Source: Bacteroidales bacterium
GTDB taxonomy: Bacteria; Bacteroidota; Bacteroidia; Bacteroidales; Marinilabiliaceae
Reading direction: 5' to 3'
Assembly (NCBI GenBank): GCA_024401355.1
Contig: JAKSLF010000013.1
Coordinates: forward strand, 1 to 64,000
Length of the DNA stretch: 64,000 bases
Shown here one piece after another: positions 383 to 61,136 of this stretch. Below the pieces are notes generated by a model, which saw only the letters and a program-made list of their open reading frames with translations, was not told the origin of the DNA and ran no database searches. The translations under genes and the position numbers were made by a program. The stretch's first letter is position 1. Each line of letters begins with the position of its first letter.

Positions 383-543
383 AGTCAAACGCATTAAATA
401 TGCTACTATCTGGCACGCCATTTCCCCCGATATAACTGAAAAGTTGCGATGAAAGATGTTAAATGTGAGGAGGAGGTGGGCAAATGGTGCGATGTGGATG
501 TTAAATATTGTTTTGAAAATGGGGGTGAAAGGCCCAAAATCGA

Positions 544-702
544 CTTTGACAATTTTGACCATGACCATTGTTAACGTAAGTTAAAGAGATGCCTTTTTTA
601 ATGGTGTCACAAAGGTATGGTAAGGGTACGGTAAGGTACCGTTATCCCTCCGAGAGAAGTGTCTGAAGTCGAGGCGGCTTTTTTTGTGAAAGATTATTAA
701 AT
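544..702 (+). repeat. Dispersed non-coding repeat, copy 1
   Basis: About 158 bp matches the reverse complement of 46532-46689. By eye roughly 140 positions are identical, with no gaps. The longest identical blocks cover AGTTAAAGAGATGCC with the following T-run, and the core from GGTATGGTAAGGG through ATCCCTCCGAG to AAGTGTCTGAAGTCGAGGC. The 25-nt segment 624-648 folds as a hairpin (GGG, ACGGTA, loop AGG, TACCGT, CCC) and is identical in both copies. The copy lies about 200 bp upstream of the plus-strand gene at 899 and reads in the same direction. Confidence 0.85.
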
Positions 703-795
703 GTTATTAAACAAAGAGTGCTTAAATTAACATAGGGGATTGGTGTTTTAACTAATATGAACACAAACTATTTGGAGTATAATGCAGAAAATGTG

Positions 796-824
796 GAATG
801 GTCGCGGTCAAACGGTCAAAGTTG
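796..824 (-). repeat. Inverted copy of the outer end of the dispersed repeat
   Basis: AATGGTCGCGGTCAAA followed by GGTCAAAGTTG matches, with one gap, the reverse complement of 541-570. It also matches the end of copy 2 on the plus strand (46665-46694). Together with 541-570 it makes copy 1 look like a 284-bp element with about 30-bp imperfect terminal inverted repeats. Copy 2 shows no second end, so this reading is tentative. Confidence 0.45.
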
Positions 825-898
825 TTTTTTTGACCTTCGTTGATGACAATATGAGGCAACCAATATATTAGGTATTCGTATATGTAATATAAAAGTAT

Positions 899-41665: not shown

Positions 41666-44332
41666 TTAGAAGAGTGTTCTCTCTGTTGGTGTAGAGTCTT
41701 CTTTGTCGTTGTCTGGTTCCTCTTCAACGACAGGCTCTTCACGTACTGTTGGGATGAGCGGCTCGAGTTCGACAATTTTGCTTACGTCGAATGTTGTGAG
41801 TCGCTTGCCCTTGGCTTTGACGCTCTTTTCTCCTATGAAGTCCATTGCGTCTACTTCCTCTTTGTTTCGCCACTTGTCGGTGCCACCATAGGTTATTTCG
41901 ATGCGTGCATGGTCTTCATCAGAGAATAGTATCATCTTCGATTTCGGTGCCTCGCTAATCATGAGCTGTGGCTTCTTCTCTGGTTCGAGCTTGAAGCGCT
42001 TGAGGTAGTACGACTTCTGTTCTCCGTCATAGTAGACTACTGACCATGTCTTGCGTTGGTCATACTTCTCTATGCGTAGTATGTTGTCTTCGAAGTGTTG
42101 TTCAAAGTCATAGCCTGTAGTGATGGCCTCGCCTTTGTTGTTGATGATAAGGATGAGGTCGTCGGCTCCGAATTCACCGAGAAGCTGTCCATGTCCGTCT
42201 GGATTGAGTCGGAGTGTTTCTGGCTCAAACCATACTTTGCGTCCGCCCAATGTTGAACCACCCTTGTGCTTCAAGACTACTTTGTGTACTTCGTGCTTTG
42301 AGAGCACGTTGCCTCGTGCAGCACGTCCCTTGACCATCAGTTCGGCCATGTTGTAGTCAAATACAAGGTTCTTCATCTTCAGTTTTGGCTTGAGGAGTAC
42401 TTTGAGCACTTCGCTCTCTCCATTAGGGTTGGCGCTGAAGTAGAATAGTTTCGACTTCTTGTGTTCGGTGATGAAGTAGTATTCTTTGTCACGTGTGATA
42501 CCTGTGACTGCAAATCGCTTGACGAATGTAGTTCCAGTTTCACCATCCAGATATGCGGCGTGGTATATCGTTCGGTTGTCGTTTTTCTTGAATATGGCGA
42601 TATGGATTACACCTGTGCCAACGTTGAGCTTTGTGTCAATCTTCTTGACTACGAAACGTCCGTCTTCATAGAAGAGTATGACGTCGTCAATGTCTGAGCA
42701 GTCGCAGATAAAGTCGCCCTTCTTAAGTCCATATCCCATGAAGCCGTCTTCGCGATCAAGGTAGAGTTTTGCGTTACGTACTGCAACTTTGGTCGAATCG
42801 ATGTTGTCAAACGAACGTATCTCGGTGAGACGTGGATGGTCTTTGCCATACTGCTTCTTGATGCGCTTGAAGTAGGCTATCGAGTAGTCGATGATATGCT
42901 CGATGTCGTTCTTCACTCGCTCCATCTCCTCTTTGAGTGCAACAAGTTTCTCTTCTGCTGCGTCTGAGTTGAAACGAAGGATGCGCGCCATCTTGATGTC
43001 AAGAAGGTGAAGAATGTCTTCCTTGGTTACTGCACGGATAAACTGAGGATAGTATGGTGTCAGTCGCTCGTCGATATACTCACATGCTTCGTCGTTGTTG
43101 TGAGCCTCTTCGAATCTCTTGTCCTTATATATACGCTCTTCGATGAATATCTTTTCGAGCGAGAGCATGTGCCACTGGTGTTCCAGCTCGTTGAGCTTTA
43201 TTTCAAGTTCCTGCTTGAGAAGATCTACGGTCTGGTCTGCGTTGTGCTTGAGAATTTCGCTGACACCCATGAAGTGAGGTTTGTTCTCATAGATGACGCA
43301 GGCGTTTGGCGAGATGTTGAGCTCGCAGTCGGTGAACGCATAGAGCGCATCGATTGTCTTGTCTGGCGAAGCACCTGGTGGAAGTGTTATGACGATGTTT
43401 GCCGTTGCGGCGGTCTTGTCATCTATCTTCTTTATCTTGATTTTCTTCTCGTTGACTTTTAGTATTGAGTCGATGAGCGATTCTGTTGTCTTGCTGAATG
43501 GTATCTCTGTTATTGCAAGTGTCTTGGCGTCAATCTTGTTGATCTTAGCACGTACACGTACTACACCACCACGCAGTCCGTCGTTGTAGCGCGATACATC
43601 GATAGAACCACCTGTAGGGAAGTCTGGATATAGTTCGAACGACTCTCCCTTGAGATATGCGATAGATGCGTCGATAAGCTCGTTGAAGTTGTGAGGCAGA
43701 ATCTTTGAAGCAAGACCTACGGCAATACCTTCAACGCCCTGTGCAAGAAGCAGAGGAAACTTAACTGGTAGAGTGACTGGCTCTTCGTTTCGTCCATCGT
43801 ACGACTGTTTCCAGATGGTAGTCTTAGGGTTAAAGACAACATCGAGAGCAAACTTAGTAAGTCGCGCTTCTATATATCGTCCAGCAGCAGCATCGTCGCC
43901 TGTGAGTATGTTACCCCAGTTACCCTGAGTGTCGACAAGTAGTTCCTTTTGTCCAAGACCGACGAGAGCTTCTTTGATTGATGCATCACCATGAGGGTGA
44001 AACTGCATGGTGTGACCCACGATGTTTGCTACTTTGTTGAAGCGTCCGTCCTCCATGCGGTTCATCGAGTGGAGCACACGTCGTTGTACTGGCTTCAGAC
44101 CATCGTTGAGATGTGGCACGGCTCGTTCGAGAATAACGTAAGAGGCATAGTCGAGAAACCACGATTTGAACATGCCGTGGAGCTGGCTGTGCTTTACAAT
44201 CTCGTCGTTCCACAATGGAGCAAGACCGTCATCTTCGACAATGTCATCAGTATTGTCGTCAAGTGGAGTGTTCTCGTCAAGGCTTTCGCTGTTTTCGAGT
44301 TCGTCCTGGCTGTCATTTATCTCGTCGCTCAT
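41666..44332 (-). CDS. parC: DNA topoisomerase IV subunit A
   Basis: Breaks and rejoins DNA within the ParC2E2 enzyme that decatenates replicated chromosomes. An 888-aa protein with an acidic N-terminal tail (about 1-45), then the gyrase-A fold: SWFLDYASYVILERAVPHLNDGLKPVQRRVLHSM, and the catalytic region RVLHSMNRMEDGRFNKVANIVGHTMQFHPHGDASI. The Tyr of AGRYIEARLTKFA is the likely DNA-linked residue. The C-terminal part carries beta-propeller-like strands and an acidic end. A few bacteria combine gyrase and topo IV names here; the pairing with a 636-aa ParE-type B subunit supports topo IV. Co-directional with parE, 37 bp downstream of it. Confidence 0.88.
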   Translation of the reverse strand: MSDEINDSQDELENSESLDENTPLDDNTDDIVEDDGLAPLWNDEIVKHSQLHGMFKSWFLDYASYVILERAVPHLNDGLKPVQRRVLHSMNRMEDGRFNKVANIVGHTMQFHPHGDASIKEALVGLGQKELLVDTQGNWGNILTGDDAAAGRYIEARLTKFALDVVFNPKTTIWKQSYDGRNEEPVTLPVKFPLLLAQGVEGIAVGLASKILPHNFNELIDASIAYLKGESFELYPDFPTGGSIDVSRYNDGLRGGVVRVRAKINKIDAKTLAITEIPFSKTTESLIDSILKVNEKKIKIKKIDDKTAATANIVITLPPGASPDKTIDALYAFTDCELNISPNACVIYENKPHFMGVSEILKHNADQTVDLLKQELEIKLNELEHQWHMLSLEKIFIEERIYKDKRFEEAHNNDEACEYIDERLTPYYPQFIRAVTKEDILHLLDIKMARILRFNSDAAEEKLVALKEEMERVKNDIEHIIDYSIAYFKRIKKQYGKDHPRLTEIRSFDNIDSTKVAVRNAKLYLDREDGFMGYGLKKGDFICDCSDIDDVILFYEDGRFVVKKIDTKLNVGTGVIHIAIFKKNDNRTIYHAAYLDGETGTTFVKRFAVTGITRDKEYYFITEHKKSKLFYFSANPNGESEVLKVLLKPKLKMKNLVFDYNMAELMVKGRAARGNVLSKHEVHKVVLKHKGGSTLGGRKVWFEPETLRLNPDGHGQLLGEFGADDLILIINNKGEAITTGYDFEQHFEDNILRIEKYDQRKTWSVVYYDGEQKSYYLKRFKLEPEKKPQLMISEAPKSKMILFSDEDHARIEITYGGTDKWRNKEEVDAMDFIGEKSVKAKGKRLTTFDVSKIVELEPLIPTVREEPVVEEEPDNDKEDSTPTERTLF

Positions 44333-44369
44333 GGTGAGTGGTTATTATCGGTTGTTGGAAATCATTTTA

Positions 44370-46280
44370 TTAATCGTATTGCTCTTCTTCGACAAGGTCT
44401 TCTTCGACCACGAGGTTGTCGATGATGAAATGCTGGCGTGAGGATGTATTCTTGCCCATGTAGAATTCCAGAAGTTCCTTGACAGCATCGTCCTTCTTCA
44501 TGTTGACAGGACTGAGTCGCATGTTTTCATTGATGAATTCACGGAACTCCTCCCAGTTGATTTCACCGAGACCCTTGAATCGTGTGATCTCTGGTTTCGC
44601 ACCAAGTTTCGATATGGCCTTGTCTCGTTCCTCCTCTGAGTAGCAATAGATTGTCTTCTGTTTGTTGCGGACGCGGAAAAGCGGCGTTTCGAGAATGAAG
44701 AGGTGACCGTTGCGGATTACTTCAGGGAAGAACTGTAGGAAGAATGTGATGACGAGCAGACGGATGTGCATTCCGTCGACATCGGCATCGGTTGCTACGA
44801 TTACCTTATTATAACGTAGATTGTCAATTCCTTCCTCAATGTCCAGAGCTGCCTGCAAGAGGTAGAACTCCTCGTTCTTGTATACGATGTCTCGCTTGAG
44901 TCCGAATGTATTGAGCGGTTTACCACGAAGTGAAAATACCGCCTGAGTGTTTGCATCGCGAGCCTTGGTGATAGAACCCGATGCAGAGTCTCCCTCGGTG
45001 ATGAAGATGCATGTGTCTTCTTTAAGGTCGCTGTTCGACGTGTAGTGTAGCGTGCAGTCACGCAGCTTCTTGTTGTGGAGGTTGGCCTTCTTGGCCTTCT
45101 CACGAGCTTGCTTCTGAATGCCGCTGATGGCTTTGCGCTCGCTTTCCGAGTCTTTTATCTTGTCTTGTAAAGCCCTGGCAGTCTCCGGATTACGATGCAG
45201 GTAGTTGTCTAGTTGCTCGGTGACAAAGTCAAGCATGAACTGACGGATTGTGACACCGGCAAGTGGATTGTCTTGTGCATCTGAAGGTGCCATCTCCTTC
45301 GAGCCGAGTTTTGTTTTTGTCTGGCTCTCGAAAATTGGTTCCTGTACCTTTATAGAGACAACTGCTGTGATGCCTGAACGTATGTCGTTGACGTCAAAGT
45401 CTTTCCCGTAGAACTCACGGACGGTTTTGACGATTGCTTCTTTGAATGCGATGAGGTGTGTGCCACCCTGTGTTGTGTTCTGGCTGTTGGCGAATGAGTA
45501 GTACTCCTCGCCATAATGGTTGGCGTGAGTGATAGCTAGTTCCAGGTCGTCACATTCTAGGTGAATGATTGGATAGACCGCATCGTCACTCATGTTCTGC
45601 TGAAGGAGGTCCACAACTCCATTGTCGCTCTTGTATGTCTCACCATTGAAGACGAGCGAGAGTCCACGGTTAAGGTATGAGTAGTTCTTCATCATTTTGA
45701 TGATGAAGTCATCGTTGTACTGATAGTTTTCGAAAAGGGTAGCGTCTGGGTCAAATGATACGCGCGTTCCATTCTTCTCCTTGGTTGGCTCGATGTCATA
45801 TTCTTTGACAACAACACCTTTTGAGAATTCCACTCTTTTCTTCTGTCCATCGCGGATTGCCTCGACAACGCATGAAGTAGAAAGAGCGTTTACGGCCTTG
45901 ATACCCACACCGTTAAGACCTATTGACTTCTTGAAGGCCGAACTGTCATACTTGCCACCTGTATTCATCTTTGAGACTACATCGACAACCTTGCCCAATG
46001 GTATTCCACGACCATAGTCACGTACAGAAACACGGGCATGATCCGTTATGGTCACTTCAATCTTGTTGCCGAATCCCATCATGAATTCGTCGATTGAGTT
46101 GTCCATTACCTCCTTGAGAAGCACGTAGATACCATCGTTATCGTATGTACCATCGCCAAGTCGTCCGATGTACATTCCAGGACGATGACGTATGTGTTCA
46201 TACCATTCGAGGGTTACGATATTGCTTTCGTCGTATGATGCGTTGGTCTTGTTGCCAGTGAGGTCTAATTCGTCAGCCAT
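44370..46280 (-). CDS. parE: DNA topoisomerase IV subunit B
   Basis: The ATPase half of topo IV. A 636-aa protein of the GHKL family. Visible are [41 protein letters not shown]-type [15 protein letters not shown] and the TOPRIM residues [12 protein letters not shown] and [14 protein letters not shown]. The C-terminus ([17 protein letters not shown]) matches the ParE/GyrB core; the enzyme is shorter than GyrB (about 650 versus 800) and lacks its insertion. A promoter (46320-46327) and a 434-bp region with the second dispersed repeat lie upstream. Confidence 0.92.
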
Positions 46281-46319
46281 AACTTACTTTCTCCTAAAAT
46301 AACTGCGTATATTCTGACG

Positions 46320-46327
46320 CAAAGATA
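46320..46327 (-). promoter_or_regulatory. -7 promoter element of parE
   Basis: TATCTTTG on the minus strand, 40 bp upstream of the parE ATG; the -33 element is weak. Confidence 0.45.
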
Positions 46328-46357
46328 ACGAATTTTTTACTTTATTAATACTCCTCA

Positions 46358-46371
46358 CGAAAATATTTTCG
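46358..46371. promoter_or_regulatory. 14-bp perfect palindrome upstream of parE
   Basis: CGAAAATATTTTCG reads the same on both strands and lies about 31 bp upstream of the parE -7 box. It could be a dimeric repressor or activator site; the binding protein is unknown. Confidence 0.35.
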
Positions 46372-46531
46372 TATCGCGAGCCGTTGCTCTCATGTTATGC
46401 GATTCTCATTAAATATATTATGTCAACATAATGACACAAAGGCGGCCGAAAAGCGAAATGTTCTTGTTAATCCATCTTTGGGTTAAAAAGCCACTTCCAT
46501 TTGTTAATTCGAGCGCAATCCCGTTGATTAT

Positions 46532-46689
46532 ATTTAATAATCTTTCACAGTTTAGGCGGCCTCGACTTCAGACACTTTTCTCGGAGGGATAACGGTACCT
46601 TACCGTACCCTTACCATACCTTCCTGACTCCATTAAAAAAGGCATCTCTTTAACTCACGTTAACGATGGTCGTGGTCAAAGTGGTCAAA
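46532..46689 (-). repeat. Dispersed non-coding repeat, copy 2 (inverted relative to copy 1)
   Basis: Reverse complement of 544-702 at roughly 89% identity by eye, without gaps. The hairpin core is 46586-46610, identical to 624-648. It lies between the nadB stop and the parE promoter and reads toward parE, so both copies sit about 200-250 bp upstream of a gene in the same orientation. Confidence 0.85.
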
Positions 46690-46714
46690 CTCGATTCCCC
46701 GATTGTTTTCTCGC

Positions 46715-48310
46715 CTAATCTATAGGATATGTGTCCAATTTCTTGTTGCGTTCCTTGTAGTCAAGAGTGTAGTGGAGGCCGCGGCTCTCATGACGCTTCT
46801 GGGCCATCTTGATGATGAGGTAGCCAATATTAATCTTGTTGCGGAGTTCGCAAAGTTTCATGGATACCTTCGATGCATTGTAGAGGTCCTCTGTCTCACG
46901 ATAGATAATCTCAAGACGATCAAGTGCTCGCTTCAGTCTGAGATTAGAGCGAACGATGCCGACATAGTTGCTCATGATTGTCTCTACTTCCTTGTTCGCC
47001 TGAGTGATGAGAATCATCTCCTCGTTGTGGACTGTTCCCTCGTCATCCCAGTCTGGTACATCCTCACGCCATTCAGTCTGACGCATTACTTCTGTTGAGT
47101 CCTTGGCTGCAACGTCTGCATATACTATCGCCTCGAGGAGTGAGTTGCTGGCCAGACGGTTGGCACCATGCAAACCTGTGCATGAACATTCGCCTGCTGC
47201 GTAGAGGTTATTGATCGAAGATCGTCCGTTGAGGTCGACCTTGATACCACCACAAAGATAATGTGCTGCTGGAACTACCGGTATCATCTCCTTAGTGATG
47301 TCGATGCCAATAGACAAGCACTTGTTATATATCATTGGGAAGTGGTGCTTTGTCTCCTCTGGGTTCTTGTGAGTAACGTCGAGGTAGACGAAGTCGTCAC
47401 CCGATATCTTCATTTCATTGTCGATAGCACGTGCTACGATATCGCGAGGTGCAAGACATCCACGTTCGTCATACTTCTCCATGAATGTCGAGCCGTCTTT
47501 GAGCTTTAGGATGGCACCATAGCCACGCATGGCTTCTGTAATGAGGAAGTTAGGACGCTCCTGCGGATTGTAGAGCGACGTTGGGTGGAACTGGATGAAC
47601 TCCATGCCCTTGATAATACCCTTCGCACGGAATACCATCGCAATGCCGTCACCTGTCGAAATCGTTGGGTTTGTTGTCACCTGGTAGACATTACCCACAC
47701 CACCAGTTGCCATCATCGTTACCTTTGAGAGGAATGTGATAATCTCATGTGTCTTCTCGTTCAGCACGTATGCACCATAGCACTTGATGTCTCTCATCCA
47801 TGGTTCGTTCGAACGACCCAGATGATGCTGGGTGATGATGTCGATGGCAAAATGATTTTCGTAGACATCGATATTTGGATGGTTCTTTATCTGTGAGATG
47901 AGAGCTCGCTGAATCTCCTCGCCAGTATTGTCAAGGTGATGGAGTATACGGAATTCTGAGTGTCCGCCTTCCTTGTGGAGGTCAAACTGACCATCAGCTT
48001 TCTTGTCGAAATCGGTTCCCCATTCCAGCAGCTGCTTTATCTGCTCTGGAGCCTTGGTGATGACGAGTCGGACTGTGTCAGGGTCGCAGATGCCTGCTCC
48101 GGCTATATGAGTGTCGATGATATGCTTCTCATAATTGTCCTTCTCGATATCGGTAACTGCAGCAATGCCGCCCTGTGCCTTCGATGTGTTGGTCACCTCA
48201 AGTGTCGTCTTTGAGACGAGGGCAACCTTTCCGTTTTCGGCCACCTTGAGTGCATAGCTCAATCCGGCAGCTCCAGAACCAATGACTAGGTAATCGTATT
48301 TCTTTCTCAT
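46715..48310 (-). CDS. nadB: L-aspartate oxidase
   Basis: FAD enzyme that oxidises L-aspartate to iminoaspartate, the first step of de novo NAD+ synthesis. A 531-aa protein with the FAD motif YLVIGSGAAGLSYAL (6-20), SKAQGGIAAV, the catalytic HKEGGHSEFRILHHLDNTGEE, QFHPTSL, LAPRDIVARAID and the C-terminal RLKRALDRLE helix. NadA and NadC are not in the window. Transcribed divergently from polA, with a -7 box at 48353-48360. Confidence 0.95.
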   Translation of the reverse strand: MRKKYDYLVIGSGAAGLSYALKVAENGKVALVSKTTLEVTNTSKAQGGIAAVTDIEKDNYEKHIIDTHIAGAGICDPDTVRLVITKAPEQIKQLLEWGTDFDKKADGQFDLHKEGGHSEFRILHHLDNTGEEIQRALISQIKNHPNIDVYENHFAIDIITQHHLGRSNEPWMRDIKCYGAYVLNEKTHEIITFLSKVTMMATGGVGNVYQVTTNPTISTGDGIAMVFRAKGIIKGMEFIQFHPTSLYNPQERPNFLITEAMRGYGAILKLKDGSTFMEKYDERGCLAPRDIVARAIDNEMKISGDDFVYLDVTHKNPEETKHHFPMIYNKCLSIGIDITKEMIPVVPAAHYLCGGIKVDLNGRSSINNLYAAGECSCTGLHGANRLASNSLLEAIVYADVAAKDSTEVMRQTEWREDVPDWDDEGTVHNEEMILITQANKEVETIMSNYVGIVRSNLRLKRALDRLEIIYRETEDLYNASKVSMKLCELRNKINIGYLIIKMAQKRHESRGLHYTLDYKERNKKLDTYPID

Positions 48311-61077: not shown

Positions 61078-61103
61078 ATGGAACTTCTCCCTTCACTTTC
61101 CCA

Positions 61104-61136
61104 TAGGGATACCGTAGGGATACCATAGGAATAAAA
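61104..61136. repeat. Three 11-bp tandem units between the EptA-like gene and a small membrane protein
   Basis: TAGGGATACCG, TAGGGATACCA, TAGGAATAAAA. The ACCG-TA-n5-ACCA-TA pattern resembles the core of the dispersed repeat (46591-46620) although the spacer bases differ. Confidence 0.6.

What the first reader, a model, noticed from the sequence alone, without database searches (positions are those of the whole stretch)
544..702. Dispersed inverted non-coding repeat with an invariant hairpin core (with 46532-46689)
Two roughly 158-bp copies, about 89% identical by eye and in opposite orientation, are unexplained by genes. The 25-nt hairpin core is identical in both. Both copies read toward a downstream gene 200-250 bp away (899 and parE). 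They could be a mobile non-autonomous element, a repeated regulatory RNA leader or a chromosomal landmark. I know of no named family matching this sequence.
Basis: seen in the sequence. Interest (0 to 1): 0.7.

Follow-up and report, generated by a model that had tools for sequence, protein, structure and literature searches.

The report
Spaced, oriented 11-base DNA repeat arrays
The two repeats are copies of a gene-free element found about 41 times in one gut bacterium's draft genome, and at its heart is a small array of 11-base units that also occurs elsewhere, keeps its distance from other such arrays and tends to point along the strand-biased DNA around it, as chromosome-marking sites bound by proteins would.

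Summary
The repeat is real: window 541-702 and 46532-46693 match at 90%, inverted. It is larger and commoner than seen. Copy 1 is a complete ~320-bp intergenic element (512-832) with imperfect inverted ends; copy 2 (about 46482-46722) lacks its right end. The draft genome holds 41 copies; 14 genus relatives show one end remnant. The "hairpin" has no covariation support; it reads as an array of 11-bp units, also found outside the element, once in this window (61100-61132, minus). A three-unit pattern gives 79 overlapping matches here (control 7), none in 99 relatives. In 20 complete contigs (1.88 Mb) I found 61 arrays: 60 intergenic, none within 6.9 kb of another (2 gaps under 9.5 kb, 12.4 expected), 50 pointing along the G-rich strand at fourfold codon sites. 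Between nearest copies the array and inner ends differ by 2-5%, the variable half by 20%. Best reading, inferred: polar, spaced, protein-binding chromosomal sites carried by a once-mobile element. Main rival: a MITE-like transposon with target immunity and replication-biased insertion. RNA-leader, REPIN/RAYT and BrickBuilt readings failed tests. Binding protein and transposase are unidentified.

The parts
512..832 (+). copy 1, complete element (boundaries approximate, about +/- 5 bp)
   Evidence: column conservation over aligned copies falls to background about 42 bp left of the left anchor and 8 bp right of the right anchor; coordinates
537..575 (+). left inverted end, AAAATCGACTTTGACAATTTTGACCATGACCATTGTTAA
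   Evidence: its inner 21-mer, up to 3 mismatches, found at 37 places, all of them element copies; right end matches left ends in reverse complement
795..832 (+). right inverted end, GGAATGGTCGCGGTCAAACGGTCAAAGTTG plus T-run
46482..46722 (-). copy 2, right end missing; left edge by analogy
46580..46623 (-). 11-bp unit array of copy 2
61100..61132 (-). array outside the element: ATTCCTATGGT ATCCCTACGGT ATCCCTATGGG (not in the finding)

Best explanation
The finding is one complete and one truncated copy of a ~320-bp intergenic element. Its working part is an array of about 3-5 direct 11-bp units (one helical turn each), flanked in the element by TTAA boxes often 10-11 or 20-21 bp apart. I think the array is a DNA-binding site: a protein oligomerises along one face of the helix, as plasmid partition proteins do on 11-bp repeats (recalled), and marks polar, spaced positions on the chromosome for segregation, repair or folding. 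The 320-bp form looks like a once-mobile carrier that spread the array; 29 arrays in the contigs examined lie outside it. Shown: copies, ends, the array, intergenic location, spacing, polarity, retention of the array. Inferred: the protein, the function, the direction of cause between array and strand bias, and that the carrier moved by transposition.
For: 41 copies. Of 18 weak model hits most share just an array with the element. 61 arrays in 20 complete contigs, 0 in an order-3 Markov copy. 60 of 61 intergenic where 91% is called coding. Spacing: 41 within-contig gaps, smallest 7.0 kb (P 5e-5), 2 under 9.5 kb against 12.4 expected (none of 20,000 random sets as low); against 11.7 when placed only in intergenic gaps (none of 5,000); element copies 0 of 15 gaps under 27 kb against 7.7; of the 20 other arrays on contigs with element copies 0 lie within 9 kb of one against 6.1 (P 0.00045). 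Polarity: 50 of 61 arrays lie on the strand with G over C at fourfold codon sites, corrected for gene strand (P 5e-7); the 29 others 26, element copies 24 of 32; fourfold GC skew +0.30 and +0.37 within 2 kb on the two sides, +0.00 and +0.08 at 15-25 kb. Constraint: among 8 mutual nearest pairs array 3.2%, inner left end 1.8%, right end 5.1%, variable part 20.2% different. TTAA spacing up to 30 bp: 115 of 181 are 10, 11, 20 or 21 bp.
Against: No binding protein identified and no binding shown. The array pattern is absent from 99 relatives, odd for a basic chromosome function. Skew strength itself is only slightly higher at arrays (63rd percentile; 0.395 against about 0.34), so arrays may merely follow existing strand domains. 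Eleven of 61 arrays point the other way; uncorrected skew over wide windows gives no clear polarity (36 of 61 at 40 kb). The non-element arrays alone are not clearly over-dispersed, and gap thresholds of 9-9.5 and 27 kb were chosen after seeing the gaps. Spacing deviates only below about 15 kb. Copies at contig ends may hide close pairs, and the array finder missed two weak hits on the contigs scanned. The constraint could be that of still-mobile lineages; the outer left end varies by 12.8%. Helical phasing is not independent between related copies (30 of 181 TTAA spacings are 17 bp) and A/T autocorrelation outside the array is mixed.
Confidence: 0.45

Rival explanations
1. A MITE-like non-autonomous transposon. 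Its inverted ends and array are transposase or accessory binding sites; target immunity spaces the copies; insertion at replication forks gives the orientation bias; arrays outside the element are old decayed copies or other subfamilies.
For: Imperfect inverted ends, 41 dispersed copies, restriction to this genome plus one end remnant in a genus relative; a second family with inverted ends around a related array (L124, L127-L129). Target immunity is known in Tn3-, Tn7- and Mu-type elements (recalled; titles and abstract starts seen in the listing).
Against: No target-site duplication in 35 copies; no other element with these ends in the assembly except one solo right end; closest two of 35 aligned copies already differ by 5.8%; the 29 arrays outside the element share little flank yet show the strongest polarity; right-truncated copies L004, L011 and L034 keep the array with 0-1 changes per copy, though L039 and L075, which lack both ends, have diverged arrays.
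Confidence: 0.35
2. The arrays do not follow strand bias but cause it: each is a polar site that sets the direction of local replication restart or of a strand-specific mutational process for about 10 kb either side.
For: Skew has the same sign on both sides and decays with distance; in 13 of 21 oppositely oriented neighbour pairs the skew sign flips, against 4 of 20 same-orientation pairs (Fisher P 0.011); gene-to-gene fourfold skew varies more here (sd 0.42 beyond sampling, 157 genes) than in 68 genes of 12 relatives (0.26).
Against: Skew strength barely peaks at arrays; the best of 30 oriented kernels explains 28% of variance; inversions that carry array and skew together would look alike; for non-element arrays the upstream skew reverses to -0.16 beyond 15 kb while for element copies it stays +0.18 at 15-25 kb; the relatives' sample is small and chosen around a few loci.
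Confidence: 0.1
3. A REPIN-like element mobilised by the RAYT transposase whose gene lies beside one copy.
For: A REP-associated tyrosine transposase gene (C52:587-1279; NF047646, E 1e-18, 67 bits, below its cut-off of 80) ends about 18 bp from the copy in L013.
Against: This RAYT and several of the relatives' RAYTs have their own palindromic REPs of the form GTAGAGACG...CGTCTCTAC next to them, unlike this element; the 29 relatives' loci from the RAYT search show no significant match to the element (best E 0.03).
Confidence: 0.03
4. A repeated regulatory RNA leader.
For: Copy 1 folds better than shuffles on both strands (z -4.3 and -3.8).
Against: No covariation, no Rfam match at threshold, gene context as background.
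Confidence: 0.04

Closest known systems
KOPS / Architecture IMparting Sequences (PMC5993296, abstract and passages read)
   Same: short motifs biased to one replication strand, thought to guide segregation, repair and replication
   Different: those are octamers, thousands per genome, and similar among related taxa; here about one array of 3-5 11-bp units per 31 kb, spaced apart and absent from relatives
matS/MatP, SBS/SlmA sites (search listing only; rest recalled)
   Same: dispersed protein-binding sites tens of kb apart
   Different: single sites of another sequence; no carrier repeat
parC/ParR partition iterons of plasmid R1 (recalled)
   Same: direct repeats of 11 bp bound by an oligomerising protein
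   Different: one plasmid locus beside parM/parR; here scattered over a chromosome
MITEs of Porphyromonas gingivalis, BrickBuilt and MITEPgRS (PMC4596501, passages read)
   Same: intergenic, inverted ends, tens of copies, internal direct repeats
   Different: ends GAGACCTTTGCA-like and internal 23/41-nt repeats are unrelated; possible TSDs of varying length reported there, none detected here
REP/BIME and REPIN-RAYT (recalled)
   Same: dispersed intergenic inverted repeats; some bind nucleoid proteins
   Different: no GTAG-palindrome; the local RAYT has its own REPs

Membership tests
MITE | terminal inverted repeats | tested here: met
   left and right ends match in reverse complement, imperfectly
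MITE | target-site duplication | tested here: not met
   no fixed-register direct repeat over 35 copies, lengths 2-10, beyond multiple testing (smallest nominal P 1e-4 in about 15,000 settings)
MITE | related autonomous transposon | tested here: inconclusive
   no other element with these ends found, but the assembly is 85% complete
MITE | empty sites in relatives | tested here: inconclusive
   parE and nadB matched on different contigs or places in the relatives, and L022 flanks had no match, so no empty site could be read
REPIN-RAYT | GTAG-palindrome REP matching that beside the RAYT gene | tested here: not met
BrickBuilt / P. gingivalis MITEs | TIR GAGACCTTTGCA and relatives | tested here: not met
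   compared by eye with the TIR table passages in PMC4596501
Structured RNA leader | compensatory base changes | tested here: not met
   1 of 29 pairs, covariation term -0.12
Structured RNA leader | match to an Rfam family | tested here: not met
   no hit at gathering; two weak sub-threshold hits, E 0.12 and 2
AIMS/KOPS-like polar sites | bias to one replication strand | tested here: inconclusive
   50 of 61 agree with local fourfold GC skew, but skew is a proxy and true fork direction is unknown
AIMS/KOPS-like polar sites | abundance and bias rise toward the terminus | not testable with these tools
   contigs of a draft genome, unordered
matS/SBS-like binding sites | bound by a dedicated protein | not testable with these tools
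   no protein identified

The most novel reading that the evidence does not exclude
A single bacterial species has built a chromosome-wide grid of polar 11-bp-unit arrays, some carried by a self-spreading element and some standing alone, that sets or reads the direction of local DNA processing. Array orientation and local strand bias flip together over distances as short as 10 kb.
Probability: 0.18. Interest if true: 0.9.

Novelty: new variant of a known kind. Interest (0 to 1): 0.66.

Why it matters
Bacterial chromosomes are known to carry polar or spaced marker motifs, but the described ones are short words shared among related taxa. Here 61 arrays in 1.88 Mb belong to a pattern absent from 99 relatives, yet they are spaced, intergenic, oriented with strand bias and kept nearly intact. 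If the reading holds, it is a young, lineage-specific chromosome-marking system, perhaps spread by a mobile element, in which the origin of such systems could be studied. If the rival holds, it is a rare case of transposon target immunity and replication-linked insertion readable from one genome.

Tried and rejected
RNA structure: alignment folding without covariation, Rfam. Small ORF in the core: an open frame exists in many copies, but by eye on the alignment the changes are not codon-like. RAYT mobilisation: rejected on its REPs. BrickBuilt: rejected on ends. Plasmid or phage origin: no match to copy 1; three viral-contig pattern scans empty. Empty sites: not readable. Broad wrapping periodicity: TTAA spacing supports 10-11 bp phasing in part, general A/T autocorrelation is mixed.

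Rows left out: alignment A1 used 35 of 40 copies then in hand (truncated L004, L011, L034, L039 and contig-edge L037 dropped); model R1 used 24 of 41; one search printed 40 of 79 places; spacing, polarity and context used 61 arrays on 20 contigs, so 9 element copies on unfetched contigs were not used. The array finder missed two weak hits on fetched contigs (C2:88202, C23:110401); an earlier, incomplete list that held them had no gap under 9.7 kb. The finder's reversed-sequence control gave 12 hits at the threshold used, 0 at a stricter threshold that still finds 53; I read the 12 as near-symmetry of real arrays because a Markov control gave 0. The pattern's reversed control gave 3 against 57 in the same contigs and 7 against 79 genome-wide. 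Polarity was looked at with several windows: uncorrected skew gave 47, 42, 39, 36 and 36 of 61 for 5, 10, 20, 40 kb and whole contig; majority gene strand gave 33 of 61.

Full report
What was checked. A search of the same draft genome (G000, 2.92 Mb, 69 contigs, 85% complete) with the first copy returned 40 matches, one more with another copy as query, and 41 strong matches with a sequence model. Aligning copies with their flanks showed that the repeat runs beyond both ends given: conserved columns start about 42 bp left of TTTGACCATGACC and stop 8 bp right of GGTCAAAGTTG, so copy 1 is about 512-832. Copy 2 loses similarity near 46482 and has no right end.

Anatomy. Left end AAATCGAGTTTGACAACTTTGACCATGACCATTGTTAA and right end GGAATGGTCRCGGTCAAATGGTCAAAGTTGATTTTTGG are imperfect inverted repeats. 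All 37 genome places that match a left-end 21-mer within 3 mismatches are element copies. The right-end pattern (69 matches, control 6) finds right ends, left ends at 3 mismatches, one solo right end (C23:30646-30689) and two poor matches elsewhere (C5:23818, C30:3381). No fixed-length target duplication shows in 35 copies. Seventeen pairs of copies share 24 to about 115 bp of left flank next to the element. Among 8 mutual nearest pairs of the 35 aligned copies the array differs by 3.2%, the inner left end 1.8%, the outer left end 12.8%, the right end 5.1%, the variable right half 20.2%; the closest pair differs by 5.8%. So there are no recent copies, and array and inner ends are kept.

The hairpin. 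Copy 1 folds better than shuffled sequence on both strands, but over 35 copies only 1 of 29 predicted pairs has a double change, Rfam has no match at threshold and divergent copies such as L038 break the inner stem (by eye). The core reads better as direct repeats: AAAGGTATGGT AAGGGTACGGT AAGGTACCGTT ATCCCTCCGAG.

Arrays beyond the element. The model search gave 18 further weak hits in this genome and one each in two relatives at E 0.06 and 0.016, which I take as chance. Most of the 18 share with the element just an array of 11-bp units; four of them (L124, L127-L129) form another family with ends TTTCATTTTGTCA/TGACAAAATGAAA. A degenerate three-unit pattern, up to 2 mismatches, matched 79 times here, overlaps included (control 7), and 0 times in 99 relatives, 14 of the same genus. 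I then took 20 complete contigs (with the window) and scanned them with a unit weight matrix: 61 arrays, none in a Markov copy of the same DNA. I classed 32 as element copies by sequence and 29 as others. At the reported cut (E up to 1e-4, over 45 bp) the others align with one another only over the array and up to about 55 bp beside it (18 alignments). One of them lies in the window at 61100-61132.

Where they sit. Sixty of 61 are intergenic though 91% of the DNA is called coding, and gene arrangement around them resembles that of intergenic gaps in general; genes within 4 kb tend to point away from the array (31-36% on the array strand upstream, 57-68% downstream). The 41 within-contig gaps are never below 6.97 kb; two are below 9.5 kb where 12.4 are expected or 11.7 with placement in intergenic gaps only; from 20 kb up the gaps are as expected. 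Element copies show no gap below 27 kb (0 of 15 against 7.7), and other arrays avoid element copies (0 of 20 within 9 kb against 6.1). The other arrays taken alone are not clearly over-dispersed (smallest gap P 0.04). The thresholds were chosen after seeing the gaps; the smallest-gap test (P 5e-5) needs none.

Which way they point. At fourfold-degenerate codon sites, with gene strand balanced, the array strand has GC skew +0.30 (upstream) and +0.37 (downstream) within 2 kb, falling to +0.00 upstream and +0.08 downstream at 15-25 kb; for non-element arrays the first values are +0.39 and +0.48, and upstream the sign reverses beyond 15 kb. Fifty of 61 arrays agree with the local corrected skew, 43 of 48 where skew exceeds 0.2. 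Neighbouring arrays of opposite orientation sit in regions of opposite skew in 13 of 21 cases, same-orientation neighbours in 4 of 20. Against a causal reading, skew strength is only slightly raised at arrays. The genome's skew is more variable between genes than in a small sample of relatives.

What was excluded. A RAYT gene lies about 18 bp from one copy, but it and several relatives' RAYTs are flanked by GTAG-palindrome REPs, and the relatives' RAYT-search loci show no significant match to the element. BrickBuilt-type ends differ. Plasmid, phage, viral-contig and species-genome searches gave nothing except one left-end remnant in a genus relative and one unfollowed 21-mer. The remnant and copy L013 share 129 bp at 81%, end plus adjoining flank, and nothing else in the stretches compared.

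Interpretation. Shown: a dispersed element with inverted ends; a conserved 11-bp-unit array inside it and elsewhere; intergenic placement, mutual spacing, strand polarity and retention of the array. Inferred: that a protein binds the array along one helical face and uses it as a polar chromosomal site, and that the 320-bp form is, or was, a mobile carrier. A transposon with target immunity and fork-biased insertion explains spacing and polarity of the element but less well the arrays outside it. Paper searches for such a system (listings only) showed none; most subscription journals are not covered.

Noticed in passing
window 42279-46235: The parE side is 96.5% identical over 3,957 bp to one genus relative (last 636 bp 100%), while nadB next door is only 82% identical to the same relative: recent exchange or a binning error.
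   Followed up: partly
window 46235-46716: parE and nadB are neighbours here, but in the relatives whose stretches I fetched only one of the two was found in each stretch, so a rearrangement probably lies at or near copy 2.
   Followed up: no
L076:587-1279: A RAYT transposase gene with GTAGAGACG-palindrome REPs upstream; related genes in 10 of 14 genus relatives at E up to 0.001, several with similar REPs.
   Followed up: partly
L124, L127, L128, L129: A second repeat family with ends TTTCATTTTGTCA / TGACAAAATGAAA around a related 11-bp array.
   Followed up: partly
L123, L125, L135, L141, L165: Several arrays outside the element are followed within about 50 bp by GTACGTGTTTCG, usually as GAGAGTACGTGTTTCG.
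   Followed up: no
G000 contigs, 1.88 Mb: Fourfold-site GC skew is strongly mosaic (mean absolute 0.35 after smoothing), more variable between genes than in 12 relatives sampled.
   Followed up: partly
L020 and L039 right flanks: The two share 374 bp at 84% identity beyond the element, another repeat.
   Followed up: no
contig ends: Eight of 41 element copies lie within 1 kb of a contig end (positions, contig lengths); copies may break the assembly.
   Followed up: no
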